The position numbers and the translations under genes are program-made. A DNA stretch of 64,000 nt from positions 372,001 to 436,000 of the forward strand of contig NBAY01000035.1 in the NCBI GenBank assembly GCA_002794775.1, given 5' to 3'. Under the pieces are notes generated by a model. The model saw nothing but the letters and a program-made list of their open reading frames with translations. It was not told the DNA's origin and searched no databases. Shown here piece after piece: positions 15,592 through 59,852 of the stretch (position 1 is its first letter; each line of letters opens with the position of its first letter). This DNA is from Porodaedalea pini. Taxonomy: Eukaryota > Basidiomycota > Agaricomycetes > Hymenochaetales > Hymenochaetaceae.

Positions 15592-15593
15592 CA

Positions 15594-21668: not shown

Positions 21669-21680
21669 AGGGGAGGGTCA
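21667..21680 (+). other. Polypurine tract
   Basis: A purine-rich run (GAAGGGGAGGG) lies just after the pol stop and just before the 3' LTR. It is where plus-strand DNA synthesis is expected to start. Confidence 0.7.
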
Positions 21681-22127
21681 TGTCATGGACGCTTTTTAAA
21701 TTATCTTATCTTATCATTTTCTCTTATCTCATCTTATCATATCTTATCCATCCATCACTAATCACGCTTATTCCTGCTTACTCATTATTCATTACGCTCC
21801 TTCTCGCACTATCTCTACTCGCTGACCGATCCTATGATTTCATTATTCTATGAAGTTCCACGATGTTCTATCATCTATCCTTATGTAGTAGTTAATTCCC
21901 TGGTCCGTGCGCAGCCGCTGAAGGGTATATAAGTAGGTAGTCCTCCTGTACTTATCCCCTAGTTTCGACCTGGTCAATTCTACCTGGCTACGTCCAGAAG
22001 CTACTCCTTATCTCTGCGCTGTGTCAGTTCCCCCTGGCTCACTGCTCTCTCTCTTGTCTCCCTCCTCCTCTGACTGAGTTCCGCGCGACCCGGCTACCAT
22101 TTGCGTACCCGTAGTCCGTCGCTGACA
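21681..22127 (+). repeat. 3' LTR of gypsy element 1
   Basis: Same length (447 bp) and sequence as the 5' LTR, apart from one C-to-T difference in GACGTTC. It is followed by the target duplication TAGAG. Confidence 0.95.
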
Positions 22128-25079
22128 TAGAGTAGCATAGGTGACAGAACATGCTTTAGAGGCCTTAGCAGTATAATGTTTGTAGAAGATATTGTTATTA
22201 TCAGAGATAAATGTAACACCAACATAGACATATTCAGTTACCCAGTTTAGTACATCTGAGCCTATTGCAATGTCAGGCTGAGGTGCACTAGTTCCAAATA
22301 GTTGGCATACTGTCTTGATGGCATTAATAATAAGAAAGTTTGTAGCACTCCAGTTTTTGAGGGCATTGAGTTTAATTTGAAGACCAGGTGCAGAGGTGGA
22401 CATAAGAGCCATGTCATCTGCCTGTTCCAAGTGGGAAATGGGTCTTCCTGCTAGGACAATGTCATCTGGGTGTGCAGGGGGACTAAAGTCAGATAGGAAT
22501 AGATTCCATAGGTGAGGAGAGGCAGGGTCCCCAGCTAGGATACCTATGAGAGATCTAAAAGATTCTGAGTACTCATTGTTTAAGCATACAGAGTACTCTA
22601 TAGATGCATATAGCATTCATAGCCAGTCAAAGATAGGGCCAGAGACTCCCTTACAATAAAGTTTGTACCATAGTGCACTATGATCTGTAGATGGGAAAGC
22701 ATTCTTCATATCCACATAGGCTATATAAAGAGGTTTCTTTTCTGCCTTTGCATGTTCAATAGCACATCGCAGTATGAAACTGTTATTATGAGTGCGATAT
22801 GATGGTCTGAAGCCATTTTGAGAGTCTGGTATGATATGGTATGCATCTGCCCATGCACGCAGGTGACGATCTATGAGCAGGGTGAGTAGCTTAAGAAAGC
22901 ATGATTGGAGACCAATGATCCTGTAGCTCTCTGGGTCCTTAATAGGTTTGCCTTTTTTAAGAATAGCAGCTAGAATTGCATGAGACCAATCTGAAGGGAT
23001 GACTTGATCATTAATGCACTCTTGAAAGAGAAGCTGAAGGGCATCTGTAGGTATTGTAAGAAGTAAATCATAGGAGACTTTGTCTGCACCGAGTGCTGAG
23101 TCAAGATTATGCTTTTCTATGTGATATAAGGCTGCTTGAATTTCTTCTTCAGTGAAGGGAGCAGAGAAGAACTTTTGAGGTGTCTTGTCTGTTGTATTGA
23201 GAGGCAGATGTTGAGCCAGAGTATGGATAGCCTGATATGCAACCTTATTGAAAGAGTTAGGTAGTGCAGAGGGGGGGTTCATGCGCTTCTGGAAGGTGTT
23301 TTGGAGCTGGGAGATAGTAACAACTGGTTGACGAGTTTTAGGGTCAATATATTGCTTGACTATATGCCAGAATTCTTTGTCTGATTTACAGGAGGTGAGT
23401 TGCTGAAGTGCAATCCATTTCTGCTTTCTGAGCTGGCTACGCCCACGATGTGTAGCTAGAGAATATTTCTCATATGATATGAGAGAGACAGTGTTGTCTT
23501 GCTTTGGTACAGACTGTATGGGTAGATTGGTCTGGACCTTTGGGATATTTAGAGGCGAGCCAGTGGGTAAGAGCCAGTGAGGGGGAGGGCTTGGGAAGTA
23601 AACAGGTTGTTCCTGAGGTAGACAAGCTCCTTCTTTTGCTTTAGTGTCAGCAGCATTATTTAGTTTATTTGTAGAATGTGCCTTTATCCAGTAGAGATGG
23701 AGAGGAGCATGTCTGGCTTTGATGAGGAGGATGATATTTTGTAGTATATCACCATTGGCACACTGAAAGCCTGTAGCTGCATATTTAACTGACCAATGTG
23801 CAATAGAGTGTATTGCATGCTCAGAGTCTGTATGTAGGTAAAGAGAGCGTTCAGGAGGAGCCCTAAATAGTGCTTGGAGGACTGCATAGAGTTCAGCTCT
23901 GTTATTTGTCTGTGAGGGACCAGGTGTTCTGCCATGCCAGTTTTGCATACTGTTGAGTGCAAAGAGAGCAGCAGAGCCAGCAGATGCAGAGGGAGCACCA
24001 TTATTGAGACATGATCCATCAGTGTAGATGTTGACAGGTGCTGTCTGGTAATATACATTGCCAAAGAGTGAGTTCTGAGCTTCTTCAGGGGATTGGGCTA
24101 AGGCTAGTGTATTCTTTAGAGAGATATCTATAGGCTGCAGCTCAGGAATCTCAGGTAGTTGAGAAGGGCTGAGTGAGGTAGGAGTATGCTCTAAGACAGC
24201 AGGGTTGTCTAGAGGTATGATATTTTGCAGGGTGAGAGAGAGTGAGGCATGATCAGACAGTAGCCTGGAATGTTGAGTGATTTTAAGAGTAGGAGAGTGC
24301 TGGAGAAGAGCATCATTGAGAATGACATAGTCAATGACAGAGCTTCCCTGTGTTTGTATAGATGTAGGAGCTGCTGGATAATCACTGGAGCTTTCCACAC
24401 CATTAAGGATAGATAGTTTAGTATCTGAGAGTATATCTAGTAGTTTGTTTTCTCTTGTATTATGTTGAGGATCACTAGATGTACCAGGGGGAGAGTTTGA
24501 GTGTTGGCTTTGCAGAGAGGCAGTGCGTGCATTGAGATCCCCAAGAGCAAGGATATTTAGTGAGGATGCAGCACAGGCAACTAGAGTTTGAAAGAAACTC
24601 TGAAGAGGCTCAATTTCTGTCCACTGAATCCAGCGAGATGATTCTGGAGAGATATAGGCATTTATAATAATTAAGTCATTGAGTTGGAGGACTTGAACAT
24701 CAGGAGAAGAGAGATCTGCTCGAGTACATAGGTCTATCTCATTTTTATATAAGGCCATGAGCCCTCCACCAAGCTGTGCAAGGGTAGGGTGAAGAGGGCG
24801 AGAGATAGTGTAAACAGAGTATCCAGAAGGTAATGAGAGAGATAGCTCTTCATCTGGCTGAAGATGAGTCTCTTGGCATAGCATTATGTCAGAAGACATG
24901 AGCAGTTTGCGGAATTCGGGGTCACACACTTTAGTAGGCGCATCGCCATAAATATTCTAGGATACAATATGTATTGGCTGACTTTGCAGCAACAGTGTAG
25001 GTTGTACTCTACTGGAACATTGAGGGATGCTATCTATTTGCTCTATTGGTGCGCGAGGCTGCAGCTCCGGTCTGTGCAT
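22128..25079 (-). pseudogene. LINE ORF2: endonuclease, RNase H, reverse transcriptase
   Basis: Reads leftward from an ATG at 25079. First is an APE-type endonuclease (IHIVS then NIYGD; CQETHLQP; ALGDLNA; SDHASL). Then comes an RNase H domain (about 24035-23630) with YTDGSC, NNRAELYAVLQAL, HTDSEHA, an IKAHS histidine and NAADTKAKEGA, so all usual catalytic residues are present. Then comes the reverse transcriptase (KKGKPIKDPESYR, NGFRPSYRTH, YVDMKNAF, and QADD in place of FADD). RNase H normally follows the reverse transcriptase in LINEs, so this order is unusual. Stops at 24958-24960 (Trp to TAG) and 22617-22619 (TGA, likely from CGA) break it. The rest is at 15144-14063. Confidence 0.85.
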
Positions 25080-25111
25080 CCCAAGCTCACGGCATAATGT
25101 GTGTGTGACCC

Positions 25112-26803
25112 CTAAGCAAAACCCTGCATATGAGTGAGGACCATGGACTCACAGTGCGTGGGTGGGGCTGAGGACCAAGCCTGTATGAATGCAAGGGCTG
25201 CTCGTTCATTTCTGAAGCGGACGGAGAGGTAGTTTGGGTCCTGTGCACGTTTGACAGAGTGCGAGCCCACCATAGCGTGATATGTCATGGAGGTGACAAT
25301 GTTCCCGAAGAGCTGCTTGAAGTCGCGACCCCAGTTTGCTGGACCAACAAGGACTGTAGTCGCATTGAGGTTCCCTGTGTTCGTGTTGTTATTGTTGTTC
25401 ACATTCACCGTGAGGAGGGTGGTCGTCGGGTTGGCCAGAGTGGGCTGTTGCGTAGGCAGATGTACTGGTTGTTGGACCAGCTGCTGCAAGGGCTGCAGTG
25501 TGGGCTGCAGCATGGGCTGCAGTGCAGGCTGTTGCGTGAACTGCTGTGCAGGCTGCAGGGGTGGTGTGGGTGCAGGTGCAGGTGCAGGCGCAGGTGCAGG
25601 TGCAGGTGCAGGCATGGTGGGGGCCGGCAGTGTTGGGGCACAGGGCTGTGTGTCGGTGGTGCCTGCGAATATGGCAGCGAGGTCGAGTAGTCTGGGCTGT
25701 GGCTCATAGCGTGCACGCTTTGGTACAGGTCCATTTGGTTCTGTATCTGACCGTGCATGCCCGTGGGATGGTGGCACAACAGCGGCGGCTGCAGATGGAG
25801 CCGTGAGGGAGCGCTTGTCGAGAGCCGTTAGCCATGCACTGTTAGCCACAATCTTACTATTGAGTTCCTCCTTGGTGCCTTCATGCAGGGCGTGGAAAGC
25901 AGAGAGGTCATCTCGGGCCTGTTGCAGCTTCGTGTCGAAGTCGTTTTGGCGGATTTTGGTGTCGAGGGAGAAGTCGCCTAGTTGCTCCTCGATTTTCTGG
26001 GCCATGAGTGTGAACAGTGCCTTCTCAATGTAGGCAGAGGCCTTGGCCTTGAAGGTGTTGTCACTGGCCATATCCGCCTGTGTGCTGACAGCGAGGATGG
26101 CCTGCTGTGCGCAATCAGCACGCATCTTGAGGGTGTTGATGTCGGCACGGAGGGCCTTGTTTTCATGCTGTAGCGCATTGATGTTGGCGGACATGTTGGC
26201 GTCGTCCTTCTGCATGGTGAGGATGAGGTCCTCGTGGTTGTTGGTGCGTCCGTGCTTGCGGACAGTGAAGAGAGTGAGCGCCCGCTCATAGAGCGTGCGC
26301 CGCGTCTCTCGTGCCTTTGCGGTCTCGTTCGGGGGTGCAAGCTGGATACCAAGGACGGACACTGCGTGGTGTTCATCCTTGGTGTACGCGCCGTCGATGA
26401 GGGTGTGCTGGCAGGAGAGCACGGTGGTGTGTCTCTTGCTGGCAGATGCCCTCATCTGCGTGGGAGTGGATGGTGCAGGAGACGCGGTGCGCACTCCTAC
26501 CGCGGTTCCTTTTGTATGGTTCACGGACGCTGATACATCCTCAGTGGATGGTGCAAGAAATGCAGTGGGCGTTTGCGCTGCTGTGTCGTCGCCGCTGGGT
26601 TGTGCTGCGGGTGTGGTGGGTGCGTCGTCAGGAGCACACACTTGCTGTGTGTGCGAGCGCGTGAGGGGTCAGTCACGAGCTGGGGTGGGTAAGCTGTGAC
26701 TTACCGCATCCGTAGACACATCACGTGTCTCCGTGGAGTTAGTGGCGTCTACCTGCGGGGTAGACGCCTGCTCTGCATTTGATGCAGGCGTGGCGGTGGC
26801 CAT
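25112..26803 (-). CDS. LINE ORF1 protein, with a possible intron
   Basis: Reading leftward, 33 codons from the ATG at 26803 join across a candidate 60-bp intron (26704-26645) to 510 codons ending at 25112. Total is about 543 aa. The N-terminal third is Ser/Thr/Pro/Ala-rich. A coiled coil lies in the middle (around NINALQHENKALRADINTL). Next is a Pro/Ala and Gln/Pro-rich low-complexity linker, and the C-terminus resembles an RNA-binding fold (LSVRFRNERAALAFIQAW). ORF1 proteins of LINEs bind the element RNA. If the intron is not real, the frame is broken by one TGA. Confidence 0.7.
25569..25613 (+). repeat. Hexamer repeat GGTGCA inside LINE ORF1
   Basis: About seven tandem copies of GGTGCA with one GGCGCA variant. 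On the minus strand they code for a Pro-Ala repeat. Confidence 0.85.
26645..26704 (-). other. Candidate spliceosomal intron in LINE ORF1
   Basis: On the minus strand it starts GTAAGT, has CTGAC near the middle as a possible branch site, and ends ACACAG. It is 60 bp, phase 0, and holds an in-frame TGA. Removing it joins two in-frame ORF1 pieces. Confidence 0.55.
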
Positions 26804-27589: not shown

Positions 27590-27815
27590 TCATGGGCTCA
27601 AGAAAAGGCTAAACTCCCTGCAAGTTTTGAATTGAGTATTTGACTGTTAGATCACTTTACAGACAGTGGTCTTCGATGGGTATGCTCATTCATTCCATAG
27701 GCACTGTGAGGATGAGCCTCCAATATGCCATAGGACTTTGGAAGATAATACAAGGCTGTGGGTAATGTAGTCATTGAGAGCACGCCGAAGGCTCGAGGAT
27801 CATCACTAGAGATGT
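27590..27815 (+). repeat. Old dispersed repeat, left half, cut by the palindrome
   Basis: This stretch aligns with about 1950-2140 (shared block ACAAGGCTGTGGGTAATGT in this copy, ACGAGGCTGTGGGTAATGT there). It stops at the palindrome start and resumes at 40427. Bases 27809-27815 (GAGATGT) are the left target duplication. Confidence 0.7.
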
Positions 27816-27892
27816 CACTTCAGGCTACCCCTCTGAGCAGACCAAGTAGGTCTATTCGTACACACAACTAATTGACCATTTAGGTATTGAGC

Positions 27893-28112
27893 CTGGGCAT
27901 GCCCAATCCACTGGGCACTCCCAGTGGGTGCGGGTTGGGTGTGCCCAATTTTTTTTACTGTGGGAAAGTTGGGTGCACCCATATCATTTGGGCACTCCCA
28001 ACTGGGCCTGCCCAGTTTTTGGGCACACCCAGTGGGAGTGCCCTGGGAGTGCCCAGATATGTCACTGTCACTGACTGTCTGGGGGACTTTTGGGCACACC
28101 CAATTTGTTTTT
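27893..28112. repeat. Outer cluster of TGGGC-N-CCCA motifs, left arm
   Basis: Several imperfect palindromes of the type TGGGCACTCCCA and TTGGGTGTGCCCAA lie within about 220 bp, some 80 bp from the element end. The mirror cluster is at 40130-40349. Repeats placed just inside transposon ends often bind the transposase; that role is inferred here. Confidence 0.75.
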
Positions 28113-28982
28113 GCCATAAAATCTAGGGGCTTTATAAATGTTGTATTTTATTGTTTTTGATCCTACAATTTAGTGATCTTGCTATTGACCATTGGCATGA
28201 ATTGAATTTTGGTCAAGATTAGTCTGCATCAGACAGGAAAGAATGCTGAGCATGCTAGATATACAGGACAAAAAGATATTTGTTGCTATTAGAAAGACTA
28301 AGATAATAAAAATAATAGAGATAGTATTGAACAGTTCTATATACTGTAAGACAAATGGAGAAATAGGGAAATTGTACAGCAGTATGAGAGAAATGAAAAT
28401 AAATATGAGTCAGCTAAAAGTGTAATGACTACTTAAGAAATCATTAATGATATTCTAACATTAAACATTGGGAATCAAGCTCCAGCATTCTAATTATATT
28501 AGAGAGATTATATGTCATAGGCTCTATGAGAAGTTCTAACTAGAGTGACATAGCTGCACTGGACACTTAAGTAGAGCAATTGAAAACTGAACAAGTGCAA
28601 AGGTCTGATACATTAGGATTAGTTTGAATGCCCAAGTAGAATAGAGAGTATAAACTAAGAGGGAAACTGAGATAGAAATGTAGAAAGAGTGTAAGCCCAC
28701 TAGAGCATTCTTATCATTTCTAACATGTTGCTGACCTTCTGAACATCATAACATAACTTTGAGATACTAAGCATCTAACACTCTGAGATACACAAAGTAT
28801 CAATACAGTGTAAAATCCTAGGATGAAGAGAACAAGAAAGGGAAGAGATTTGAAGTTAAAATGAAAGAGAGACTTGAAAGCAGTCAGACTTGAGCTGTGC
28901 TCAAATATCAGGCCTGGACTACTAAGCTTAAAAGATTAGATATGACTAGTTGACTGTATCTAAATCTTTTACAGGTACCTAG

Positions 28983-29420
28983 TTGAGTATACTCAGTATA
29001 CCCAACTATTTGGGAGTGCCCAATTATCTGGGGGTGCCCAATTGGGCACACCCAACTATCTGGGGGTGCCCAGTTGGGAGTGCCCAATTATCTGGGGGTG
29101 CCCAGTTGGGAGTGCCCAACTATCTGGGGGTGCCCAGTTGGGAGTGCCCAACTATCTGGGGGTGCCCAGTTGGGAGTGCCCAACTATCTGGGGGTGCCCA
29201 GTTGGGTGCGCCCAACTATCTGGGGGTGCCCAGTTGGGCGTGCCCAACTATCTGGGAGTGCCCAGTTGGGCACACCCAATTATCTGGGGGTGCCGAACTG
29301 GGTGCGCCCAACTATCTGGGGGTGCCCAACTGGGTGCACCCAATTATCTAGGGGTGCCCAGTTAGGTACATCCAATTATCTGGAGGTGTCCAGTTAGGTA
29401 CACCCAAATGTCTGAGAGTA
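28983..29420. repeat. Tandem array of a ~32-bp unit, left arm
   Basis: About 13 tandem units of about 32 bp, each holding CCCAACTATCTGGGGGTGCC followed by CAGTTGGGAGTG or a variant. Each unit contains a TTGGG-N4-CCCAA type palindrome. Because 32 is not a multiple of three, the array is open in all three frames and gives spurious repeat proteins. Confidence 0.9.
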
Positions 29421-30681
29421 CCTAGCTATATAAGGTCTTTTTTGATTCCTGCCTTAGAATCATTTTTTAAAATGCAAAAAATCATTATGTCATGAAAATT
29501 AAATAAGTCTAGAATGGAAGCCTTAATAATTCTATAGATAATTTCTCAAGCATTTTGTTCTAGACTCTGCATCTTGGCAGCTTTGCTCTGAAGACAAATC
29601 AATACACTACAATCATTGACCCGACACCAGAGCTTCCACAAGATTAAGGACAAGAAAGCATAAAACTTCATTTTGAAGAGATTACCACCCTGCTCCTCAA
29701 TAGTGCTCTGTATCTTCTCAATTGCATGCTCAAGACACTCAATTGCTGCATACCGCAAACTCAAAATAGGTATAGAGTGAGACAATTACAACAAACACAG
29801 CACACATTGTCAGTAGCATTTGTACCCAGCACACAGAGAGGCAGTGAAATGAGCTTTGCCTTGATAGGTACCACCTCAGTGCTCACCACCTCACCTGTCT
29901 GATAATATCAATGCCCATGTCCATATAGCACATTAACTCAATGTCTGCATGCAGCTTGATTGGCTACAGTAGTTGGCCACCACATGATCATCACCATCAG
30001 CTATGCGAATGTTGCCAGTAACAGCAAGTTCAACAGCATTGTGAAGACCTTCTCCAGCTCCATCAGTATGAGCTTGAATGCATCATACAGATGGCCATAT
30101 GTCTTGCCTAGCAGCCACCATCACTATTTCCTTCTTGTCCTCACCTGTTGCCTCCAGTTTTGCAGGTGTGGTGCTGGACTGGCCCTCAGAGATCTCCTCT
30201 GACAAAAGTTTGGATGCAACATGTCATAATATGGATGCAACCATCTTCTCTTCACATTTTGTAATGTCCTCCAGTGATACACAACACTTACTCAGATCAA
30301 AGTATCCTTCAAGGATAACAAATGAATGACTGAGACTGATACAACAGATACAACAAGAGACAGACCCTTCCCCTTGTCCTCATGCAGGATGACAATGATC
30401 TCTTTCCTTCCAACACAGATCAGCCTTTGAATTGAACAAGTTCACCTGCAAGAAAGCTCTGAGAGTAGAATCATCCCCTTGATGTTGTCACATTCAACCT
30501 GTATATATCATGAATGACAGTCAGTATTAAGTCACATCAGCCTCTGACCCGACACTCAAGCCCAAGTTGGACAAATAGTTCAAATCTGTACTCCATGCGG
30601 GACTCCACACACCATTAGTACTGTTATTGAAGTTATAGCTATAATGATAGCTACATGACACCACACACAGTATCTCAAGCA
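29421..30681. other. Unrecognised sequence in the palindrome arm
   Basis: Mirror of 37561-38821. It contains gene-like stretches (for example a frame with IECLEHAIEKIQSTIEEQGG on the plus strand of the right arm near 38490) but I cannot name them. They may be further captured fragments. Confidence 0.4.
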
Positions 30682-31392
30682 TTGGTTCACCAAGTGAGAG
30701 TGGCAAGTACAAAAAGCACACTGTCAGCTCTTCAAGTGGGACAGGCATCGGGTCAGACGACAATGGTGTCTGACGGAAAGCGGAAAAAGCAATGTTCGTT
30801 GTGCACTGAGTGCCGCGTGCTGGTGAGCTGCAATGATCGTGAGAGGGCGGCACACTCCGCACGGCTGCGCCATCTGGCAGCGTAGCAGCACACCTGAGCT
30901 CTGTTCGCGAACCCTGCCTTTGTCTGCGTACGGCCAAATTCCGGACTATTTGCATCGGACAAGGGTGGACTCGGGAAGTGCATCGCGTCGCGTGCTGCAG
31001 ATTGTTGGCAGTGAACCAAATGCGATTGTTGATTCACCAAGTGAGAGCGGCGAGTACGACAGGCAGAATGTCAGTTTTTTGAGCGGAACGGGCATCGGTC
31101 AGACAACAATGGTGTCTGTGATGCAAGCGCGGAAGAAAGGAATGTTTGCTGTGCACTGAGCGCCGCAATGACCGCGAGAGGTGGACCAACAAACGAGAAC
31201 GGCAACGATCCTGGGGATCAATAGTGGGGCAGCACGCTCCGCACGGCCGCATCACCTGGCAGCGTCGCAGCATGTCTGAGGTACTCCGTTTGCCATCCCT
31301 GCCTTTGTCTGCGCGCGGCCAGACTTCAGACTTGCGCCTGCATCTGGCAAGGGTGGACTCGGGAAGTGCCCCGCGTTTGTGCACTGCAGAAA
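30682..31392 (-). repeat. Tandem duplication next to the cyclin relic, left arm
   Basis: Mirror of 36850-37560. Two diverged tandem units of about 350-390 bp share blocks such as CACTTCCCGAGTCCACCC and the sequence around GACACCATTG. Confidence 0.7.
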
Positions 31393-32636
31393 CCGGAGAC
31401 GATCCAAATGCATTCGTACCCTCGCTTTTCGTGCGTTGCATGTTGCGTGACTTCTCTTCCTGCGGCAGCGTAGTGCTCTTGCCGACCCAGAGACACCACC
31501 CTAGGGCATCGCCCAATGCGCGTTAGCAGCGTTCAACCACGCGTGATGGGACCGGAGAGCTTTGCCCATGCTCGATTCAAATAGCATCGATCCTGTAAGA
31601 ATCTTGATACCACAACGAGTGCGGCGACGAAAGTGCGCCGCGGGCGAAGAAGCGGCGATGACAGAGGTGACAGCGGTGTGAACGGTTTTCCAAGGATCTT
31701 ACGACGCTTGTCGTTAGACTGCCCTTGAGTCTGCATCTGCTGAGTTAATGGAAGCGAAGTGTCCATATGGTAGACTGTCGGCACGCGCGATGTGTCGGAG
31801 GGGTCCATTGACGTCAGCTCTGTCGGAAGACCGCAGGGGTTGGACGTGTCCGAAGAGGTATTTGCCTTTGACGAGAGAGACGCCTCGCCTTCCCTCTTAT
31901 CCAACTCCGGCTCGCCCCTCACTCCCGTGCTGATCTTCTCCTTCTCCGCGAGCCCCGTCACCTTCCCCCGCACCACCCCGATGTAGCAGAGCGCCGACTG
32001 CAGGACGCTACGTCTCGTGCGTGAACGGCGAGGCGAGTGCGATGCAGTGCGTATGCGACGAAGTGCGCAAGCGTATTCGGTATCACTGGTGCCCCTCCTG
32101 ATCCTGCCGTTGCGGTAGCGGGGGAACGCGAGACGACTGCGGTCGAGGACGATGTGGAAGAGGTGGAGGACGACGGAGGAAGGAGCTCGGGGCAGTCGAA
32201 GGTATGGCTGACGAAGCGCGCGCAGAGCTTGCTGATGTCTTCGTGCCCGTAGTAAGTGTCGACTGCCGGTGGGGGTGCTGCCGGCGCGGGGTGGTGCGAG
32301 TGGTGTGCGCGCGGGACTGCCGATGACTGTTTTTTTGTCGAGCGTTTTCGGCGCGGTCGGAGGGAAAAAAAAGTGATAGAGAAAAAGACACCGATCAACA
32401 GCCGCTCATCACTCAAGTATCAGAGATCGGGGGGAAAGAGGGGGGATGCTTACAGAACTCGAGGTAGACGCTGCGGCAGCGGCGGACGCAGAAGACGATT
32501 TCGCAGGTGGAGGCGGGGCGTACGTCGCGCGGTGCACGCGCCGGAAGGGCGAGTGGTTCGAGCTGGCACTCGACGGTGATATTGAATGCGGATGCGGATG
32601 GGGGTGGGGATGGCGCGGGGCGTGGACGGTGGCCAT
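31392..32636 (-). pseudogene. Captured Pho80/Pcl-type cyclin relic, left arm
   Basis: Near-identical mirror copy of the relic at 35606-36850, described there. Two of the arm differences fall within it: 32185 and 32583. Confidence 0.75.
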
Positions 32637-32851
32637 ATTCGCTGCAGCGGGCTCTCTGGCTCTGGACGTTGACGAGCGTCTGTGAGCGTCGAAGGACAGG
32701 TGGAGTTGATGCGTGAGAAGAGGTCGCTGCGAATGTTTTGATCGGAACGAGATCCTTCTCGGACACAACGGTTGCGTCGCGTTCGCCGGACCGCTCAATG
32801 AGAAGGGCGGATGGGAAAACGGCTGACGTCGATGTTGAAGCGTGTGGATCG

Positions 32852-33163
32852 TCAAGGGGGGCAGGAGGAAGAGGCGAGGAACACGTGCTGCGTGAACAGG
32901 GCGAGGGAAGTTGAACCACACCAGTGCGGCAGAGACGGAGGGAAGAGTGACCAGCAGAAAGGAGCACCCTGCTTCATCGGGAAGCCCTGCTTGTCGTTTC
33001 CGCCAGAGACGCGGAAGACGTAGCCCTTGAACTCATCACCGAGCAAGTCGCTGGGGACACCTGGGACATCTTCTTGCCGTGGAAAATGCGGTAACGACGC
33101 TCATCGTCGATGTTGATCGTCTTTTGCTGGCCCATCGCCAGGTCAGCGATGTCGACACTTCAT
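32852..33163 (-). pseudogene. Captured ribosomal protein S6 fragment, left arm
   Basis: Mirror copy of 35079-35390, described there, with the same broken frames. Confidence 0.75.
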
Positions 33164-33968
33164 GGCCGGTGGTGTCTTGAGGAGCTCGTCGTGTTCTGTC
33201 CCTTCAGGCAAGCAAAAAAAATGATGAAAAGTAATTATTAGTATATTCAAATAGTTTTTATGATTATTTTTTTTGCTTACCTTGAGTGTGTGGCTGGTGG
33301 GACAGCCGTGCTCGTCGTCGATGGTGAAGACGAAACGACACGAACAACGACGACGCGTTGGTTGTGTTGCCTGATTTGGCTGATCGCCGCGTCTCAAACA
33401 AGCAATCAAAGCATTCCGATTCTTTCGGAAATCTCAAAAGTCTCAGCTGTTGGCCTCAGACAAATTCTACGGACGCGTTTAAAAATACAAAAAAATATGG
33501 AATAGTTTTATTATGTATGTATCTATAGCATAGCTAAGAATTACGCGTCCAACGCGTTTTTTTATGGAGTCATAAATACAACAGTAATCTTGACATGCAG
33601 CACCAGGCCTCCAGAAGCATACACAAAAGTACAATATACCCTGAAAGGCCTGACACATATTCTATCATGAAGTAAGTGATACATTGTGTATGTATGCAAG
33701 GTTTCAAGCCAATCAGACAAGAACTGACTTCATGATAGAGAAGGAGGTGGTTTCATGAGATCTTCTGAATCTGAGTGTTTTGTATATCCTGTTCCCAGTT
33801 TTTACTTTGAGGGCATATAAAATATTGAGCATATTTAGGGATATCGTTTTTATGTCTCTGTAAATTTACAGGTATCCAGCCTCAGTGGTTGGAGCTGGGG
33901 GAATTGCAAAACATCGAAAATCTTGGGTTTAAGAGGTTCAGAGAAAGCATATATTCATGTTGTTGCTT

Positions 33969-34273
33969 TATTCCAAACTTCAGGAAGCTCTATAAAATAG
34001 ATATTAGTACTTTATATGACTACAATAAATGTAATCAGGTGCTAGATCTCGGAGTTAGAGGAAAGTTCTGAAGGGGGAGAGGAAATACATGCAAAACTGC
34101 TCTGTGTTTCTTGGATTTGCGTCGAGTTTCACAAAACATGAACTGCATCACTTCTCATTTCACTCCCCATTCCCAACTTTTCCCTCACCCACAAAACTAA
34201 GGGTTGGATATCTTTCTTGGACCATACTTAAATACAAATAACTAAATTTGTTGAGCTTCTCATACTTTGAACC
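33969..34273. other. Central spacer of the palindrome
   Basis: This 305-bp sequence is present once. It has no gene and no recognisable signal. It contains short A/T-rich runs and a CTCCCC-rich patch near 34162. Confidence 0.85.
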
Positions 34274-35078
34274 AAGCAACAACATGAATATATGCTTTCT
34301 CTGAACCTCTTAAACCCAAGATTTTCGATGTTTTGCAATTCCCCCAGCTCCAACCACTGAGGCTGGATACCTGTAAATTTACAGAGACATAAAAACGATA
34401 TCCCTAAATATGCTCAATATTTTATATGCCCTCAAAGTAAAAACTGGGAACAGGATATACAAAACACTCAGATTCAGAAGATCTCATGAAACCACCTCCT
34501 TCTCTATCATGAAGTCAGTTCTTGTCTGATTGGCTTGAAACCTTGCATACATACACAATGTATCACTTACTTCATGATAGAATATGTGTCAGGCCTTTCA
34601 GGGTATATTGTACTTTTGTGTATGCTTCTGGAGGCCTGGTGCTGCATGTCAAGATTACTGTTGTATTTATGACTCCATAAAAAAACGCGTTGGACGCGTA
34701 ATTCTTAGCTATGCTATAGATACATACATAATAAAACTATTCCATATTTTTTTGTATTTTTAAACGCGTCCGTAGAATTTGTCTGAGGCCAACAGCTGAG
34801 ACTTTTGAGATTTCCGAAAGAATCGGAATGCTTTGATTGCTTGTTTGAGACGCGGCGATCAGCCAAATCAGGCAACACAACCAACGCGTCGTCGTTGTTC
34901 GTGTCGTTTCGTCTTCACCATCGACGACGAGCACGGCTGTCCCACCAGCCACACACTCAAGGTAAGCAAAAAAAATAATCATAAAAACTATTTGAATATA
35001 CTAATAATTACTTTTCATCATTTTTTTTGCTTGCCTGAAGGGACAGAACACGACGAGCTCCTCAAGACACCACCGGCC

Positions 35079-35390
35079 ATGAAGTGTCGACATCGCTGAC
35101 CTGGCGATGGGCCAGCAAAAGACGATCAACATCGACGATGAGCGTCGTTACCGCATTTTCCACGGCAAGAAGATGTCCCAGGTGTCCCCAGCGACTTGCT
35201 CGGTGATGAGTTCAAGGGCTACGTCTTCCGCGTCTCTGGCGGAAACGACAAGCAGGGCTTCCCGATGAAGCAGGGTGCTCCTTTCTGCTGGTCACTCTTC
35301 CCTCCGTCTCTGCCGCACTGGTGTGGTTCAACTTCCCTCGCCCTGTTCACGCAGCACGTGTTCCTCGCCTCTTCCTCCTGCCCCCCTTGA
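35079..35390 (+). pseudogene. Captured ribosomal protein S6 (eS6) fragment, right arm
   Basis: eS6 is a protein of the small ribosomal subunit. The stretch reads like the N-terminal part of eS6, with MK near 35079, [12 protein letters not shown] in one frame, the hallmark [13 protein letters not shown] in a second, and [13 protein letters not shown] in a third where eS6 has a GHSCYRPRRTG-like motif. Frameshifts separate the pieces and the 3' part of the gene is missing. Upstream, an intron-like stretch (about 34962-35040, GTAAGC to TGAAG) may come from the 5' part of the same gene. It is non-functional as protein. Confidence 0.75.
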
Positions 35391-35605
35391 CGATCCACAC
35401 GCTTCAACATCGACGTCAGCCGTTTTCCCATCCGCCCTTCTCATTGAGCGGTCCGGCGAACGCGACGCAACCGTTGTGTCCGAGAAGGATCTCGTTCCGA
35501 TCAAAACATTCGCAGCGACCTCTTCTCACGCATCAACTCCACCTGTCCTTCGACGCTCACAGACGCTCGTCAACGTCCAGAGCCAGAGAGCCCGCTGCAG
35601 CGAAT

Positions 35606-36850
35606 ATGGCCACCGTCCACGCCCCGCGCCATCCCCACCCCCATCCGCATCCGCATTCGATATCACCGTCGAGTGCCAGCTCGAACCACTCGCCCTTCCG
35701 GCGCGTGCACCGCGCGACGTACGCCCCGCCTCCACCTGCGAAATCGTCTTCTGCGTCCGCCGCTGCCGCAGCGTCTACCTCGAGTTCTGTAAGCATCCCC
35801 CCTCTTTCCCCCCGATCTCTGATACTTGAGTGATGAGCGGCTGTTGATCGGTGTCTTTTTCTCTATCACTTTTTTTTCCCTCCGACCGCGCCGAAAACGC
35901 TCGACAAAAAAACAGTCATCGGCAGTCCCGCGCGCACACCACTCGCACCACCCCGCGCCGGCAGCACCCCCACCGGCAGTCGACACTTACTACGGGCACG
36001 AAGACATCAGCAAGCTCTGCGCGCGCTTCGTCAGCCATACCTTCGACTGCCCCGAGATCCTTCCTCCGTCGTCCTCCACCTCTTCCACATCGTCCTCGAC
36101 CGCAGTCGTCTCGCGTTCCCCCGCTACCGCAACGGCAGGATCAGGAGGGGCACCAGTGATACCGAATACGCTTGCGCACTTCGTCGCATACGCACTGCAT
36201 CGCACTCGCCTCGCCGTTCACGCACGAGACGTAGCGTCCTGCAGTCGGCGCTCTGCTACATCGGGGTGGTGCGGGGGAAGGTGACGGGGCTCGCGGAGAA
36301 GGAGAAGATCAGCACGGGAGTGAGGGGCGAGCCGGAGTTGGATAAGAGGGAAGGCGAGGCGTCTCTCTCGTCAAAGGCAAATACCTCTTCGGACACGTCC
36401 AACCCCTGCGGTCTTCCGACAGAGCTGACGTCAATGGACCCCTCCGACACATCGCGCGTGCCGACAGTCTACCATATGGACACTTCGCTTCCATTAACTC
36501 AGCAGATGCAGACTCAAGGGCAGTCTAACGACAAGCGTCGTAAGATCCTTGGAAAACCGTTCACACCGCTGTCACCTCTGTCATCGCCGCTTCTTCGCCC
36601 GCGGCGCACTTTCGTCGCCGCACTCGTTGTGGTATCAAGATTCTTACAGGATCGATGCTATTTGAATCGAGCATGGGCAAAGCTCTCCGGTCCCATCACG
36701 CGTGGTTGAACGCTGCTAACGCGCATTGGGCGATGCCCTAGGGTGGTGTCTCTGGGTCGGCAAGAGCACTACGCTGCCGCAGGAAGAGAAGTCACGCAAC
36801 ATGCAACGCACGAAAAGCGAGGGTACGAATGCATTTGGATCGTCTCCGGT
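35606..36850 (+). pseudogene. Captured Pho80/Pcl-type cyclin relic, right arm
   Basis: Cyclins of this type activate Pho85-like kinases. A first exon (35606-35788, His/Pro/Ser-rich start) and an intron with GTAAGC and ACAG ends (35789-35915) lead to a second exon holding YYGHEDISKLCARFVSH and LAHFVAYALHRTRL. After a frame change come SVLQSALCYI and CPRRTFL-like sequence read here as RPRRTFVAALVVVSRFLQD, then NRAWAKLSG. A stop and another frame change precede RALGDALGWCLWVGK and RTKSEG. These match the cyclin box and tail of fungal Pho80/Pcl cyclins from memory of the family. The intron shows capture at DNA level or from unspliced RNA. Confidence 0.75.
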
Positions 36851-37560
36851 TTCTGCAGTGCACAAACGCGGGGCACTTCCCGAGTCCACCCTTGCCAGAT
36901 GCAGGCGCAAGTCTGAAGTCTGGCCGCGCGCAGACAAAGGCAGGGATGGCAAACGGAGTACCTCAGACATGCTGCGACGCTGCCAGGTGATGCGGCCGTG
37001 CGGAGCGTGCTGCCCCACTATTGATCCCCAGGATCGTTGCCGTTCTCGTTTGTTGGTCCACCTCTCGCGGTCATTGCGGCGCTCAGTGCACAGCAAACAT
37101 TCCTTTCTTCCGCGCTTGCATCACAGACACCATTGTTGTCTGACCGATGCCCGTTCCGCTCAAAAAACTGACATTCTGCCTGTCGTACTCGCCGCTCTCA
37201 CTTGGTGAATCAACAATCGCATTTGGTTCACTGCCAACAATCTGCAGCACGCGACGCGATGCACTTCCCGAGTCCACCCTTGTCCGATGCAAATAGTCCG
37301 GAATTTGGCCGTACGCAGACAAAGGCAGGGTTCGCGAACAGAGCTCAGGTGTGCTGCTACGCTGCCAGATGGCGCAGCCGTGCGGAGTGTGCCGCCCTCT
37401 CACGATCATTGCAGCTCACCAGCACGCGGCACTCAGTGCACAACGAACATTGCTTTTTCCGCTTTCCGTCAGACACCATTGTCGTCTGACCCGATGCCTG
37501 TCCCACTTGAAGAGCTGACAGTGTGCTTTTTGTACTTGCCACTCTCACTTGGTGAACCAA
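36850..37560 (+). repeat. Tandem duplication next to the cyclin relic, right arm
   Basis: CACTTCCCGAGTCCACCC occurs at about 36865 and again at about 37263, followed by parallel blocks through CTCTCACTTGGTGAA at about 37195 and CTCTCACTTGGTGAACC at about 37544. The units differ by perhaps a fifth of positions, so the duplication is older than the palindrome. Confidence 0.7.
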
Positions 37561-38821
37561 TGCTTGAGATACTGTGTGTGGTGTCATGTAGCTATCATTA
37601 TAGCTATAACTTCAATAACAGTACTAATGGTGTGTGGAGTCCCGCATGGAGTACAGATTTGAACTATTTGTCCAACTTGGGCTTGAGTGTCGGGTCAGAG
37701 GCCGATGCGACTTAATACTGACTGTCATTCATGATATATACAGGTTGAATGTGACAACATCAAGGGGATGATTCTACTCTCAGAGCTTTCTTGCAGGTGA
37801 ACTTGTTCAATTCAAAGGCTGATCTGTGTTGGAAGGAAAGAGATCATTGTCATCCTGCATGTGGACAAGGGGAAGGGTCTGTCTCTTGTTGTATCTGTTG
37901 TATCAGTCTCAGTCATTCATTTGTTATCCTTGAAGGATACTTTGATCTGAGTAAGTGTTGTGTATCACTGGAGGACATTACAAAATGTGAAGAGAAGATG
38001 GTTGCATCCATATTATGACATGTTGCATCCAAACTTTTGTCAGAGGAGATCTCTGAGGGCCAGTCCAGCACCACACCTGCAAAACTGGAGGCAACAGGTG
38101 AGGACAAGAAGGAAATAGTGATGGTGGCTGCTAGGCAAGACATATGGCCATCTGTATGATGCATTCAAGCTCATACTGATGGAGCTGGAGAAGGTCTTCA
38201 CAATGCTGTTGAACTTGCTGTTACTGGCAACATTCGCACAGCTGATGGTGATGATCATGTGGTGGCCAACTACTGTAGCCAATCAAGCTGCATGCAGACA
38301 TTGAGTTAATGTGCTATATGGACATGGGCATTGATATTATCAGACAGGTGAGGTGGTGAGCACTGAGGTGGTACCTATCAAGGCAAAGCTCATTTCACTG
38401 CCTCTCTGTGTGCTGGGTACAAATGCTACTGACAATGTGTGCTGTGTTTGTTGTAATTGTCTCACTCTATACCTATTTTGAGTTTGCGGTATGCAGCAAT
38501 TGAGTGTCTTGAGCATGCAATTGAGAAGATACAGAGCACTATTGAGGAGCAGGGTGGTAATCTCTTCAAAATGAAGTTTTATGCTTTCTTGTCCTTAATC
38601 TTGTGGAAGCTCTGGTGTCGGGTCAATGATTGTAGTGTATTGATTTGTCTTCAGAGCAAAGCTGCCAAGATGCAGAGTCTAGAACAAAATGCTTGAGAAA
38701 TTATCTATAGAATTATTAAGGCTTCCATTCTAGACTTATTTAATTTTCATGACATAATGATTTTTTGCATTTTAAAAAATGATTCTAAGGCAGGAATCAA
38801 AAAAGACCTTATATAGCTAGG

Positions 38822-39259
38822 TACTCTCAGACATTTGGGTGTACCTAACTGGACACCTCCAGATAATTGGATGTACCTAACTGGGCACCCCTAGATAATT
38901 GGGTGCACCCAGTTGGGCACCCCCAGATAGTTGGGCGCACCCAGTTCGGCACCCCCAGATAATTGGGTGTGCCCAACTGGGCACTCCCAGATAGTTGGGC
39001 ACGCCCAACTGGGCACCCCCAGATAGTTGGGCGCACCCAACTGGGCACCCCCAGATAGTTGGGCACTCCCAACTGGGCACCCCCAGATAGTTGGGCACTC
39101 CCAACTGGGCACCCCCAGATAGTTGGGCACTCCCAACTGGGCACCCCCAGATAATTGGGCACTCCCAACTGGGCACCCCCAGATAGTTGGGTGTGCCCAA
39201 TTGGGCACCCCCAGATAATTGGGCACTCCCAAATAGTTGGGTATACTGAGTATACTCAA
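38822..39259. repeat. Tandem array of a ~32-bp unit, right arm
   Basis: Mirror copy of the array at 28983-29420. Confidence 0.9.
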
Positions 39260-40129
39260 CTAGGTACCTGTAAAAGATTTAGATACAGTCAACTAGTCAT
39301 ATCTAATCTTTTAAGCTTAGTAGTCCAGGCCTGATATTTGAGCACAGCTCAAGTCTGACTGCTTTCAAGTCTCTCTTTCATTTTAACTTCAAATCTCTTC
39401 CCTTTCTTGTTCTCTTCATCCTAGGATTTTACACTGTATTGATACTTTGTGTATCTCAGAGTGTTAGATGCTTAGTATCTCAAAGTTATGTTATGATGTT
39501 CAGAAGGTCAGCAACATGTTAGAAATGATAAGAATGCTCTAGTGGGCTTACACTCTTTCTACATTTCTATCTCAGTTTCCCTCTTAGTTTATACTCTCTA
39601 TTCTACTTGGGCATTCAAACTAATCCTAATGTATCAGACCTTTGCACTTGTTCAGTTTTCAATTGCTCTACTTAAGTGTCCAGTGCAGCTATGTCACTCT
39701 AGTTAGAACTTCTCATAGAGCCTATGACATATAATCTCTCTAATATAATTAGAATGCTGGAGCTTGATTCCCAATGTTTAATGTTAGAATATCATTAATG
39801 ATTTCTTAAGTAGTCATTACACTTTTAGCTGACTCATATTTATTTTCATTTCTCTCATACTGCTGTACAATTTCCCTATTTCTCCATTTGTCTTACAGTA
39901 TATAGAACTGTTCAATACTATCTCTATTATTTTTATTATCTTAGTCTTTCTAATAGCAACAAATATCTTTTTGTCCTGTATATCTAGCATGCTCAGCATT
40001 CTTTCCTGTCTGATGCAGACTAATCTTGACCAAAATTCAATTCATGCCAATGGTCAATAGCAAGATCACTAAATTGTAGGATCAAAAACAATAAAATACA
40101 ACATTTATAAAGCCCCTAGATTTTATGGC

Positions 40130-40349
40130 AAAAACAAATTGGGTGTGCCCAAAAGTCCCCCAGACAGTCAGTGACAGTGACATATCTGGGCACTCCCAGG
40201 GCACTCCCACTGGGTGTGCCCAAAAACTGGGCAGGCCCAGTTGGGAGTGCCCAAATGATATGGGTGCACCCAACTTTCCCACAGTAAAAAAAATTGGGCA
40301 CACCCAACCCGCACCCACTGGGAGTGCCCAGTGGATTGGGCATGCCCAG
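40130..40349. repeat. Outer cluster of TGGGC-N-CCCA motifs, right arm
   Basis: Mirror copy of the cluster at 27893-28112. Confidence 0.75.
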
Positions 40350-40426
40350 GCTCAATACCTAAATGGTCAATTAGTTGTGTGTACGAATAGACCTACTTGG
40401 TCTGCTCAGAGGGGTAGCCTGAAGTG

Positions 40427-40780
40427 GAGATGTCGCGTTGCGCCAAGTCCGAACGCAGAATGCTATCTCTGATTTGGATGTGATGCACGAACTATGTCCT
40501 ATCATTAACGTCATTGGATACGATGATCTCATAATTGGCCTGCACGGGTTCCGTTCACTCCTCTCCAGTTTTCTGCAATACAAATGCTTGAAGCTCAGAT
40601 TGGCTACGCTCTGGATTGACAAACCTCAGATGCGCACAAAGCCGCTATGTGCAGGAGTTTTGCAGGCGGTGTGGATGCAGCGCTCTCGATGTCGCTTGGT
40701 GTTATCAAAGCGCTCTCGATGCTGGTATTTCCCTGTCCATTTTCTCCCTGATTTGCATTCCTAACCATGACAAGGGTTTC
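40427..40780 (+). repeat. Old dispersed repeat, right half after the palindrome
   Basis: It starts with the right target duplication GAGATGT and continues the repeat that ends at 27815. It aligns with about 2140-2470, sharing TATGTCCTATCATTAAC, ATTGGATACGATGATCTCAT and GCTTGAAGCTCAGATTGG. Confidence 0.75.
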
Positions 40781-41281: not shown

Positions 41282-42141
41282 ATTTACAGCCATTTTCATA
41301 AGTCCTGCGACACGTGCATGTCACGTGAAGTGAGCCGCGTCAGAGCCAAAGTGTCGAAGAATTAGAATGAATGCCTATTTTCTCTGTGAATTCTGCACAG
41401 TACCTGCTCATTAAGTACTCAAAAAAAAGGCACGGTTCTCAGGAGAAGAAATATGTAAAATATGGAGCAATAAATTGACTGTGTAGGCGGGTGGAGATCA
41501 AACAAGTGCAGCTGGTCTGTTCTCTCACCCATTTCCACTGAGATTCAAAAGTTATGGCTCCCCTACATCTACCTATAAAATTCTTTCCTGTGTCTGTAAA
41601 TTAAGTATATGACTATACCAACATCTCCTGCAAGTTTGAAGCCAATCCATTCAGTATTCATGGTCCAGCAGCAAGATTTGTGTTCCACTTCAAGCTCTTT
41701 CCACCCTTCTTTTCTCACAACAGCACAGACAAGAGTGGAACACAAATCCTGCTGCTGCACCATGAATACTGAATGGATTGGCTTCAAACTTGCAGGAGAT
41801 GTTGGTATAGTCATATACTTAATTTACAGATACAGGAAAGAATTTTATAGGTAGATGTAGGGGAGCCATAATTTTTGAATCTCAGTGGAAATGGGTGAGA
41901 GAACAGACCAGCTGCACTTGTTTGATCTCCACCCACCTACACAGTCAATTTATTGCTCCATATTTTACATATTTCTTCTCCTGAGAACCGTGCCTTTTTT
42001 TTGAGTACTTAATGAGCAGGTACTGTGCAGAATTCACAGAGAAAATAGGCATTCATTCTAATTCTTCGACACTTTGGCTCTGACGCGGCTCACTTCACGT
42101 GACATGCACGTGTCGCAGGACTTATGAAAATGGCTGTAAAT
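41282..42141. mobile_element. Fold-back element 2
   Basis: Two inverted arms of 408 bp (41282-41689 and 41734-42141) surround a 44-bp spacer. The arms differ at only a few positions (for example GTGTCTGTAAA against GATACAGGAAA on one strand). The ends read ATTTACAGCCATTTTCATAAG. The outer sequence resembles the left end of fold-back element 1 (near 5304-5345). No gene and no clear target duplication are seen. Confidence 0.85.
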
Positions 42142-45933: not shown

Positions 45934-46685
45934 TGTAACACCAACTGGTTCGTTGGGCATGGAACGAGCGGAACGCACACGATGTATGTCACAAAGTCGA
46001 AGAGCCTCGACTCAGCAATCGAGCAAAGTGGTACACCCGGATCGGCGGTGATTACCCAAACACAGAATGCACGGAATGACCGGATCGCACGCATCAGCTA
46101 CTCAGACCGACCCCGGTGCACTTATCTGTGCACATGTCCTCTCGACCCTGCCAAAGGTTCGTTCATTTGCCTTTGTCTAACGAACATGCGCCAGCCTGGC
46201 ATTGGTCGTTCCGGCTCCGTACAAAGGATCCTGAAGCTCACCAATGCTACACCAAGTCAACACACGCCATCCCCACCTTTCAGTAGTTCGGATTGTGGAG
46301 CCGCTCAAAGGAACACTCAGGAGGCTCAGTGGAAGGACAATAGAGGACTCATCTTATTTTATTTCACCTTTCATGTTTACGCAGGACACTTGTTTAGTAT
46401 TTATAGAGTGCCAAATGTTGTAGATAGGACAGCAATTCCACCCCTGAGTTTTGACGCCTAACTTTGTGTGATATCTCTCAGGACGGTCCCTAGGAACACT
46501 TTGGTGTCTTAGTGACTTGAATCGCTCACCTCGACTTCATTTTATTCATGTTGCGCTTGTTGCACTCGTTCCGTCTGTTCTGTCTTTGCCTCGTTTCTGC
46601 TTCATTCTCATTACCTTGACCTTGCTCCCCTCTCGTCTTTTATCTTCTGATTTAGTTCCGTACATTGTCTCGCCCCCTGGCATTC

Positions 46686-52517: not shown

Positions 52518-52518
52518 A

Positions 52519-56256: not shown

Positions 56257-56269
56257 TTACCCTCCCCTC

Positions 56270-59840: not shown

Positions 59841-59852
59841 TTGCCCCAATAG

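What the first reader, a model, noticed from the sequence alone, without database searches (positions are those of the whole stretch)
27816..40426. A 12.6-kb nearly perfect palindrome that behaves like a transposon
Seen: arms of exactly 6,153 bp each, about five differences noticed, a 305-bp spacer, ends CACTTCAGGC and GCCTGAAGTG, and GAGATGT directly repeated on both sides. Known: fold-back elements exist in several eukaryotes and Galileo elements make 7-bp duplications, but arms over 6 kb are exceptional. Inference: this is a giant non-autonomous fold-back transposon, mobilised by an enzyme coded elsewhere and perhaps of a new fungal family. The near identity means recent formation or gene conversion between arms.
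Basis: partly seen in the sequence, partly recalled or inferred. Interest (0 to 1): 0.92.

Follow-up and report, generated by a model that had tools for sequence, protein, structure and literature searches.

The report
Giant palindromic transposon family in fungus
A 12.6-kb near-perfect DNA palindrome in a fungal genome is one of dozens of copies of a jumping gene with no enzyme of its own that carries pieces of two host genes, and whose two mirror halves stay almost identical even where different copies have drifted apart.

Summary
Confirmed. Arms 27816-33968 and 34274-40426 differ at 6 of 6,153 bases; the spacer is 305 bp; GAGATGT flanks both sides. A second locus (C63) carries the same flanks uninterrupted, with one GAGATGT: a precise empty site.

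It belongs to a large family. The spacer matched at 40 of 40 scored places (52 candidates). A host RPS6 gene fragment, carried in each arm, forms 50 inverted pairs; 39 have both element ends among the listed places. Two larger same-ended elements (22.1 and 29.6 kb) have ~4-kb inverted repeats and 8-bp duplications and enclose a KDZ transposase domain. Of 24 elements read at both junctions, 21 have 7-8-bp duplications (two with one mismatch).

Best reading: a non-autonomous fold-back relative of KDZ transposons that captured RPS6 and cyclin gene pieces. It was palindromic before its subfamilies separated by 5-7%, yet arms within 11 copies differ by only 0-20 bases: concerted evolution, most likely gene conversion between arms. 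A new variant of a known kind, larger and more numerous than fold-back elements I saw in print.

The parts
27809..27815 (.). left target-site duplication GAGATGT
   Evidence: one copy only at the C63 empty site
27816..33968 (+). left arm of the palindrome, 6,153 bp, begins CACTTCAGGCTACCCC
   Evidence: same end in 65 (28-mer, up to 3 mismatches) and 118 (16-mer, up to 1 mismatch) places genome-wide
33969..34273 (.). 305-bp spacer, the only part not duplicated; homologous spacer at 40 of 40 scored places (52 candidates), 39 of them centred in an inverted RPS6 pair
34274..40426 (-). right arm, inverted copy with 6 substitutions
40427..40433 (.). right target-site duplication GAGATGT
29010..29395 (.). 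subterminal tandem array, 32-bp unit, 12.1 copies, rich in TGGG..CCCA motifs (left arm)
   Evidence: similar arrays in C28 and C2 elements
38828..39232 (.). the same tandem array in the right arm
32919..33192 (-). captured 5' coding fragment of the host 40S ribosomal protein S6 gene (left arm); 90% identical over 229 bp and 83% over 46 bp to the intact gene at C81:91618
35050..35323 (+). mirror RPS6 fragment (right arm)
32031..32729 (-). captured fragment of a host cyclin-domain gene (C33:135.5-136.8 kb), 95% over 700 bp (left arm)
35513..36211 (+). mirror cyclin fragment (right arm; coordinates by symmetry from the left-arm match)
31387..32028 (-). stretch 80% identical to C28:74200-75000, a second locus with a weak cyclin match (left arm)
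36214..36855 (+). mirror of that stretch (right arm; coordinates by symmetry)

Best explanation
The feature is one insertion of a large family of non-autonomous fold-back DNA transposons, most likely moved in trans by KDZ (Kyakuja-Dileera-Zisupton) transposases of larger same-ended elements in the same genome. An ancestral element with kilobase inverted repeats captured pieces of the host RPS6 gene and of a cyclin gene. It became a full palindrome when nearly all of its interior was taken into the repeats, leaving one short spacer (inferred). It then spread with 7-8-bp target duplications (shown). Since then the two arms of each copy have evolved in concert, most likely by gene conversion between the arms. 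Shown: copies, ends, duplications, empty site, KDZ domain in two same-ended elements, captured pieces, arm concordance. Inferred: that this KDZ enzyme moves the palindromes, how the first palindrome arose, and the molecular route of homogenisation.
For: Family: 65 and 118 end matches with 0 reversed-control hits; spacer at 40 of 40 scored places of 52 candidates; 50 inverted pairs and 7 single RPS6 fragments among 107 of the 113 rows (I dropped the intact gene and 5 overlapping rows), 39 of the 50 pairs with both ends among the listed places. Transposition: of 24 elements with both junctions read, 10 have an exact 7-bp and 9 an exact 8-bp duplication, 2 have 7 bp with one mismatch, 1 has 6 bp, 2 have none; empty site C63; a nested insertion at C50 whose uninterrupted site is present in sister copies. 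Partner: C28:3533-25584 (22,052 bp, ~4.02-kb inverted repeats at 98.3%, 5 mismatches and 3 gaps, duplication ACTTGTAT) holds a KDZ domain at E 2.4e-60; C2:501266-530822 (29,557 bp, ~4.0-kb repeats at 97.3%, duplication TTGCTATC) holds one 85% identical to C28's over residues 60-246. No other transposase family above cut-off in the 20 C28 ORFs of 120 aa or more. Concerted evolution: arm differences in 11 copies are 6,8,0,0,0,1,0,1,20,0,0 (C35w,C3,C14a,C14b,C19,C20,C29a,C29b,C40,C42,C46), against 0.16-0.67% between the eight subfamily A copies and about 5-7% between subfamilies; arms are sisters in 10 of 11 copies; subfamily changes are mirrored in both arms next to the shared spacer in the four copies aligned; in C20 the palindrome runs 37 bp further into the spacer edge than in 8 other copies.
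Against: Trans-mobilisation was not shown. C28 shares with the palindrome only its ends, about 350 bp at 81% and the tandem motifs; the rest of the repeat differs. Whether the KDZ genes are intact is unknown: only open stretches were read. C40 does not fit: its left arm groups with C29a, it has 20 arm differences and no change that is private and shared by its arms; its spacer edges show single-base deletions that look like sequencing errors. In the window copy itself, private changes shared by both arms (6) are no more than arm differences (6). C14b and C25 lack matching duplications. Only 11 palindromes, against 50 inverted pairs counted, were read in full. One contig (C168) repeats a locus already on C120, so counts may include redundant contigs. 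No reads were available to check the assembly.
Confidence: 0.87

Rival explanations
1. Arm identity is renewed at transposition or breakage rather than by steady gene conversion: a hairpin or snap-back copy of one arm rebuilds the whole palindrome, perhaps primed by the imperfect inverted repeat at the spacer edges, and arms then diverge with age.
For: Arms are identical (0 differences in the compared columns) in 6 of 11 copies, as expected of a copy-at-birth process; the two spacer edges resemble each other in inverted orientation (by eye).
Against: C20 and C46 have duplications with one CpG-type transition each, but only 1 and 0 arm differences; over the 9 copies with a clear duplication, 2 of 65 duplication sites against 16 of 39,829 arm sites differ (Fisher P 0.0004). 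So arms seem to be corrected after insertion. Only two mismatches carry this argument.
Confidence: 0.15
2. Assembly or sequencing artefact (folded-over reads or consensus homogenisation).
For: Near identity of arms; no reads available; C40 shows probable consensus errors and C168 is a redundant contig.
Against: Target duplications with distinct sequences flank 22 of 24 elements read (6-8 bp); a clean empty site; the same central spacer in 39 inverted pairs; 132 C20-private changes present in both arms, which polishing cannot invent; one copy (C19) has an LTR element in one arm only.
Confidence: 0.03
3. The palindromes are moved by an unrelated enzyme (P-type as in Galileo, hAT, or CACTA-type), and sharing ends with the KDZ elements is coincidence.
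For: 7-8-bp duplications also fit P and hAT elements (recalled; hAT with 7-bp duplications in fungi, PMC12730594 passages); ends begin CACT; hAT domains exist in the genome (10 rows).
Against: 28 of 28 end bases are shared with a KDZ-bearing element; duplications are not 3 bp as in CACTA; none of the 10 hAT rows lies inside a listed same-ended pair; no hAT or P family in the 20 C28 ORFs. A search for the P-type domain PF21787 gave 0 rows, but nothing rang in its controls either, so that is no evidence of absence.
Confidence: 0.06

Closest known systems
KDZ transposons of fungi (Kyakuja in Laccaria, Dileera in Puccinia, KDZ1-3 in Cryptococcus)
   Same: KDZ transposase domain in the same-ended partners; 7-bp (Kyakuja) or 8-bp (Zisupton, Dileera) duplications and, for Kyakuja, CA..TG ends (PMC12730594, passages); 4-8-bp duplications in Cryptococcus (PMC12810828, passages)
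   Different: Reported inverted repeats are absent (Kyakuja-1/2_LB) or 139-241 bp (Cryptococcus KDZ1-3); here ~4 kb in the partners and 6.2 kb in the window palindrome; one end family gives both 7- and 8-bp duplications
Galileo (P superfamily, Drosophila)
   Same: Fold-back derivatives made almost only of inverted repeats with internal tandem repeats, 7-bp duplications, within-copy repeat identity of 98-100%, chimeric copies without matching duplications, recruitment of interior into the repeats by ectopic repair proposed (PMC3573991, passages)
   Different: Repeats average 668 bp in D. mojavensis; the largest that I saw is one 9,021-bp copy with 4.2/4.7-kb repeats in D. willistoni (PMC4168063, passages). 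Different transposase superfamily; no large set of uniform giant palindromes in the passages I saw
Transposon-amplified housekeeping gene fragments in fungi (histone H3 in a hAT element, Pseudocercospora)
   Same: One original host gene plus many transposon-borne copies (PMC6710886, abstract and outline)
   Different: Here the captured pieces (RPS6, cyclin) sit twice per element in mirror image, in a palindrome with the ends of KDZ-bearing elements
Tm1 Mutator/Foldback family (Meloidogyne)
   Same: Fold-back type repeats with MITE-like and transposase-bearing members (PMC3169594, passages)
   Different: 9-bp duplications; Mutator-type; sizes in the passages I saw are a 1,080-bp element and a 3,154-bp clone

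Membership tests
KDZ superfamily (as non-autonomous derivative) | KDZ transposase in a larger relative with the same ends | tested here: met
   C28 and C2 elements; PF18758 E 2.4e-60 for C28; C2 domain 85% identical to C28's over residues 60-246
KDZ superfamily (as non-autonomous derivative) | 7- or 8-bp target-site duplication | tested here: met
   21 of 24 elements read have 7-8 bp with at most one mismatch
KDZ superfamily (as non-autonomous derivative) | CA..TG element ends (reported for Kyakuja) | tested here: met
   CACTTCAGG..CCTGAAGTG
KDZ superfamily (as non-autonomous derivative) | KDZ enzyme acts on these ends | not testable with these tools
   needs a transposition or cleavage assay
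Kyakuja, Dileera or Zisupton subgroup | transposase phylogeny | not tested
   no named subgroup references were at hand; 705 homologues found, the best of the 120 listed about 60% identical
Fold-back (FB-type) element | element made almost wholly of long inverted repeats | tested here: met
   arms 12,306 of 12,611 bp; all 11 copies read in full are palindromes, C3 and C19 with extra inserted DNA
Galileo / P superfamily | P-type transposase in a same-ended element | tested here: inconclusive
   no such family in the 20 C28 ORFs scanned; genome search with PF21787 gave 0 rows but its controls were silent too
hAT superfamily | hAT transposase in a same-ended element | tested here: not met
   10 hAT rows in the genome, none inside a listed same-ended pair; 18 of 118 end places were not listed
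CACTA (CMC) | 3-bp target duplication | tested here: not met
   7-8 bp

The most novel reading that the evidence does not exclude
The palindrome is actively regenerated as part of the element's life: a hairpin or snap-back step, or very efficient arm-to-arm conversion, copies changes of one arm into the other. Anything captured by one arm, such as RPS6 and cyclin pieces, is thereby made into a two-copy mirror gene that would give long double-stranded RNA if transcribed across the spacer. The family would then be a self-correcting gene-capture and hairpin-RNA system aimed at host RPS6 and cyclin.
Probability: 0.12. Interest if true: 0.88.

Novelty: new variant of a known kind. Interest (0 to 1): 0.72.

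Why it matters
Long palindromes are usually thought unstable in microbes (general knowledge). Here one genome holds dozens of long palindromes of common ancestry at many loci, with a single spacer marking the centre, so arm-to-arm conversion can be measured directly against copy divergence. It also shows that KDZ-bearing elements can carry kilobase inverted repeats, and that same-ended elements amplify pieces of essential host genes in mirror image, which raises a testable question about small RNAs against RPS6.

Tried and rejected
Considered and rejected: chance inverted repeat (length and identity); assembly fold-over (duplications, empty site, mirrored subfamily changes); CACTA membership despite the CACT ends (duplication length); simple internal deletion of the C28 element (arms differ beyond the first ~350 bp and the tandem motifs). 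Pfam scans of nine arm frames found no family above cut-off; the RPS6 and cyclin pieces were spotted by eye in the frames and then tested against host genes. Rfam (gathering threshold) and tRNA scans of the window gave nothing. Two stretches of C122 (1.6 and 1.4 kb), guessed to hold the ends of that palindrome, held no copy of the core end motif, so the ends of that subfamily stay unknown; 11 of the 50 pairs lack one or both listed ends.

Literature: nine searches were answered. Judged by titles and starts of abstracts in the listings, plus passages in PMC12810828, PMC12730594, PMC9674265, PMC3573991, PMC4168063 and PMC3169594, I saw no description of KDZ palindromes or of fold-back arms above 5 kb. 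The library is open-licence only.

Counts and dropped rows: one search gave 113 rows; 107 were used for pairing, and only minus-then-plus neighbours less than 15 kb apart were called a pair. One search listed 100 of 118 end places; I added three end places. The nested C50 case was mis-sized (33,963 bp uses the inner element's right end); corrected, the 39 elements cover 592,656 bp, 1.1% of the genome, inserts by other elements included. That C2's KDZ lies inside the element rests on coordinates; the middle of C2 was read only around the KDZ domain.
Full report
Observation. The palindrome is exactly where it was reported: two arms of 6,153 bp with 6 substitutions (window positions 30003, 30380, 30534, 30539, 32185 and 32583 in the left arm), a 305-bp spacer, ends CACTTCAGGC/GCCTGAAGTG, and GAGATGT on both sides. 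The window lies at contig C35:372001-436000 of a 53.3-Mb genome in 201 contigs.

It is an insertion. The last 434 bp of the left flank also occur at C63. There the left flank (96.3%) and the right flank (96.7% over 720 bp) are joined with an overlap of exactly the 7 bases GAGATGT. This is an empty site at a related locus. A second empty-site case is nested: the C50 copy sits inside another member of the family with a TATACTG duplication, and the uninterrupted sequence is found in sister copies, at 97.3% in C3 (75 of 93 bp), 97.8% in C20, 96.8% in C46 and 89-95% in the others.

It is one of many. The 28-base end pattern (up to 3 mismatches) occurs 65 times and the 16-base pattern (up to 1 mismatch) 118 times, each with 0 hits for the reversed control. 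The 305-bp spacer matched at all 40 scored places of 52 candidates, 93-100% identical. 39 of those 40 lie between an inverted pair of RPS6 fragments, within 35 bp of the pair's centre; the 40th (C168) lies near a contig end. The RPS6 family model finds one intact gene (C81:91618-91995) and 112 further rows. Of the 107 rows that I paired, 100 make 50 inverted pairs and 7 are single; 39 of the 50 pairs have both element ends among the listed places, and cover 592,656 bp, 1.1% of the genome, inserts included. Redundant contigs may inflate these counts: C168 repeats the C120 locus. Among the 22 elements with a recognisable duplication, no two duplications have the same sequence.

Target duplications. 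Both junctions were read for 24 elements: 22 palindrome-family copies plus the two large KDZ-bearing elements. Ten have exact 7-bp and nine exact 8-bp duplications. C20 and C46 have 7 bp with one mismatch, C40 has 6 bp, and C14b and C25 have none. The 8-bp cases are not chance extensions of 7-bp ones, because they are in a different register.

The likely enzyme source. KDZ transposase domains are abundant in this genome (77 rows). Two lie inside same-ended elements. C28:3533-25584 is 22,052 bp, with inverted repeats of about 4.02 kb (98.3%: 5 mismatches and 3 gaps), an ACTTGTAT duplication and a KDZ open stretch at E 2.4e-60. C2:501266-530822 is 29,557 bp, with about 4.0-kb repeats at 97.3%, a TTGCTATC duplication and a KDZ domain 85% identical to that of C28 over residues 60-246. 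C28 shares with the palindrome all 28 end bases, about 350 bp at 81%, and the subterminal tandem motif, but not the rest of the arm. So it is a plausible helper but not the direct parent. The other 19 C28 ORFs of 120 aa or more (20 listed) gave no Pfam family above cut-off. hAT domains occur in the genome (10 rows), none inside a listed same-ended pair. A P-type domain search gave nothing, but its controls were silent too.

What the arms carry. On the outward-reading strand of each arm there is a 5' piece of RPS6 (90% over 229 bp and 83% over 46 bp, with 26 bp of the gene missing between the two) and a 700-bp piece 95% identical to a host cyclin-domain gene at C33. Next to it lies a stretch of about 640 bp 80% identical to a second locus with a weak cyclin match. 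Whether the last two come from one or two genes was not resolved. The pairs of RPS6 fragments were defined as minus-then-plus, that is, reading outward from the spacer; the 7 singles lie on 7 different contigs, so no pair of the opposite orientation was left over.

Concerted evolution. Eleven copies were read in full; all are palindromes, C19 with an insert in one arm and C3 with extra DNA in the middle. In the arm proper, without the tandem array and the junction (5,641 columns, fewer where noted), arm differences are C35w 6, C3 8 (of 2,792), C14a 0, C14b 0, C19 0 (of 2,571), C20 1 (of 2,849), C29a 0, C29b 1, C40 20 (of 5,640), C42 0, C46 0 (of 3,412). Between the eight subfamily A copies the distance averages 0.43% (0.16-0.67%, 28 pairs). 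Between subfamilies it is about 5% (A against C3 and C46) and about 7% (C20 against the rest). Copy-private changes found in both arms, against sites where the arms differ, are: C20 132 against 1, C46 25 against 0, C14b 14 against 0, C3 11 against 8, C19 8 against 0, C29b 7 against 1, C35w (window) 6 against 6, C42 5 against 0, C14a 2 against 0, C29a 1 against 0, C40 0 against 20. At sites variable within subfamily A the two arms agree in 657 of 684 cells. A FastTree tree makes the two arms sisters in 10 of 11 copies; the exception is C40, whose left arm joins C29a.

The palindrome is older than the subfamilies. The spacer and the junction are homologous in the four copies aligned (C35w, C14a, C20 and C46), and subfamily substitutions next to the spacer appear in mirror image on both sides. 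Counted from the start of a common motif, the perfect palindrome runs 26 bases in 8 copies, 19 in C46 and 63 in C20 (the motif was not found in C3), as expected if copying tracts end at different points. So the arms have been homogenised since the common palindromic ancestor. Homogenisation probably continues after insertion: C20 and C46 have duplications with one CpG-type mismatch each, but 1 and 0 arm differences (2 of 65 duplication sites against 16 of 39,829 arm sites in nine copies, Fisher P 0.0004). This last point rests on two mismatches and is suggestive only. C19 has an LTR retroelement (414-bp LTRs, 99.8% identical) in one arm only, so large young insertions are not instantly copied or removed.

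Against the reading. C40 shows single-base deletions at its spacer edges that look like consensus errors, and its arms differ most; it may be a chimera or a poorly polished stretch. C14b and C25 lack matching duplications, as Galileo chimeras do (PMC3573991, passages). The window copy has as many arm differences as private shared changes. The helper enzyme was not shown to act on these ends. I could not inspect reads.

Comparison with what is known. KDZ elements in fungi are known with 7-bp (Kyakuja, CA..TG ends, no inverted repeats) or 8-bp (Zisupton, Dileera) duplications (PMC12730594, passages), and with 139-241-bp repeats and 4-8-bp duplications in Cryptococcus (PMC12810828, passages). Fold-back elements with long repeats are known from Galileo, with repeats averaging 668 bp and one 9,021-bp copy with 4.2/4.7-kb repeats (PMC4168063, passages). 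Amplification of a housekeeping gene by a fungal transposon is known for histone H3 (PMC6710886, abstract and outline). What appears new is the combination: dozens of long palindromes (12.5-20 kb in 35 of the 39 with both ends listed) with the ends of KDZ-bearing elements, carrying host gene fragments in mirror image, with arms evolving in concert. My nine answered literature searches, judged by titles and abstract starts, did not list such a case; the library is open-licence only.

Verdict. A real, unusual and well-supported transposon family.

Noticed in passing
window 41282-42141: An 860-bp near-perfect hairpin (95.6%) with ends ATTTACAGCC/GGCTGTAAAT, 0.86 kb right of the giant palindrome; no flanking duplication of 2-12 bp found. 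Different ends, so probably another family.
   Followed up: partly
window 15145-22127: A Gypsy-type LTR retroelement (typed by eye) with 447-bp LTRs 99.8% identical and long open reading frames; related elements at 46683-52932 and 55841-62121.
   Followed up: no
window 22008-26668, minus strand: Long open reading frames that look like a non-LTR retroelement (endonuclease/reverse transcriptase-like); recognised by eye only.
   Followed up: no
L005 (C168) and L006 (C120): C168's flank is the reverse complement of C120's left flank: the same insertion on two contigs, so the assembly holds some redundant or second-haplotype contigs.
   Followed up: partly
L033-L034 (C40): Spacer edges of the C40 copy have several single-base deletions against the other copies, which look like consensus errors; its arms are the least alike of the 11.
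   Followed up: partly
L072-L074 (C2:501266-530822): A 29.6-kb same-ended KDZ element most of whose middle was not read; it may carry cargo genes.
   Followed up: no
G000:C50:61983-97119: A palindrome-family member holding another complete palindrome nested in its tandem array.
   Followed up: partly
L062, L063 (C122) and C44, C54, C65, C83: Five inverted pairs with 94%-identical arm core and 98%-identical spacer have no listed end of the common type; the C122 stretches fetched to find its ends hold the tandem motifs but no core end motif. They may have different ends.
   Followed up: partly
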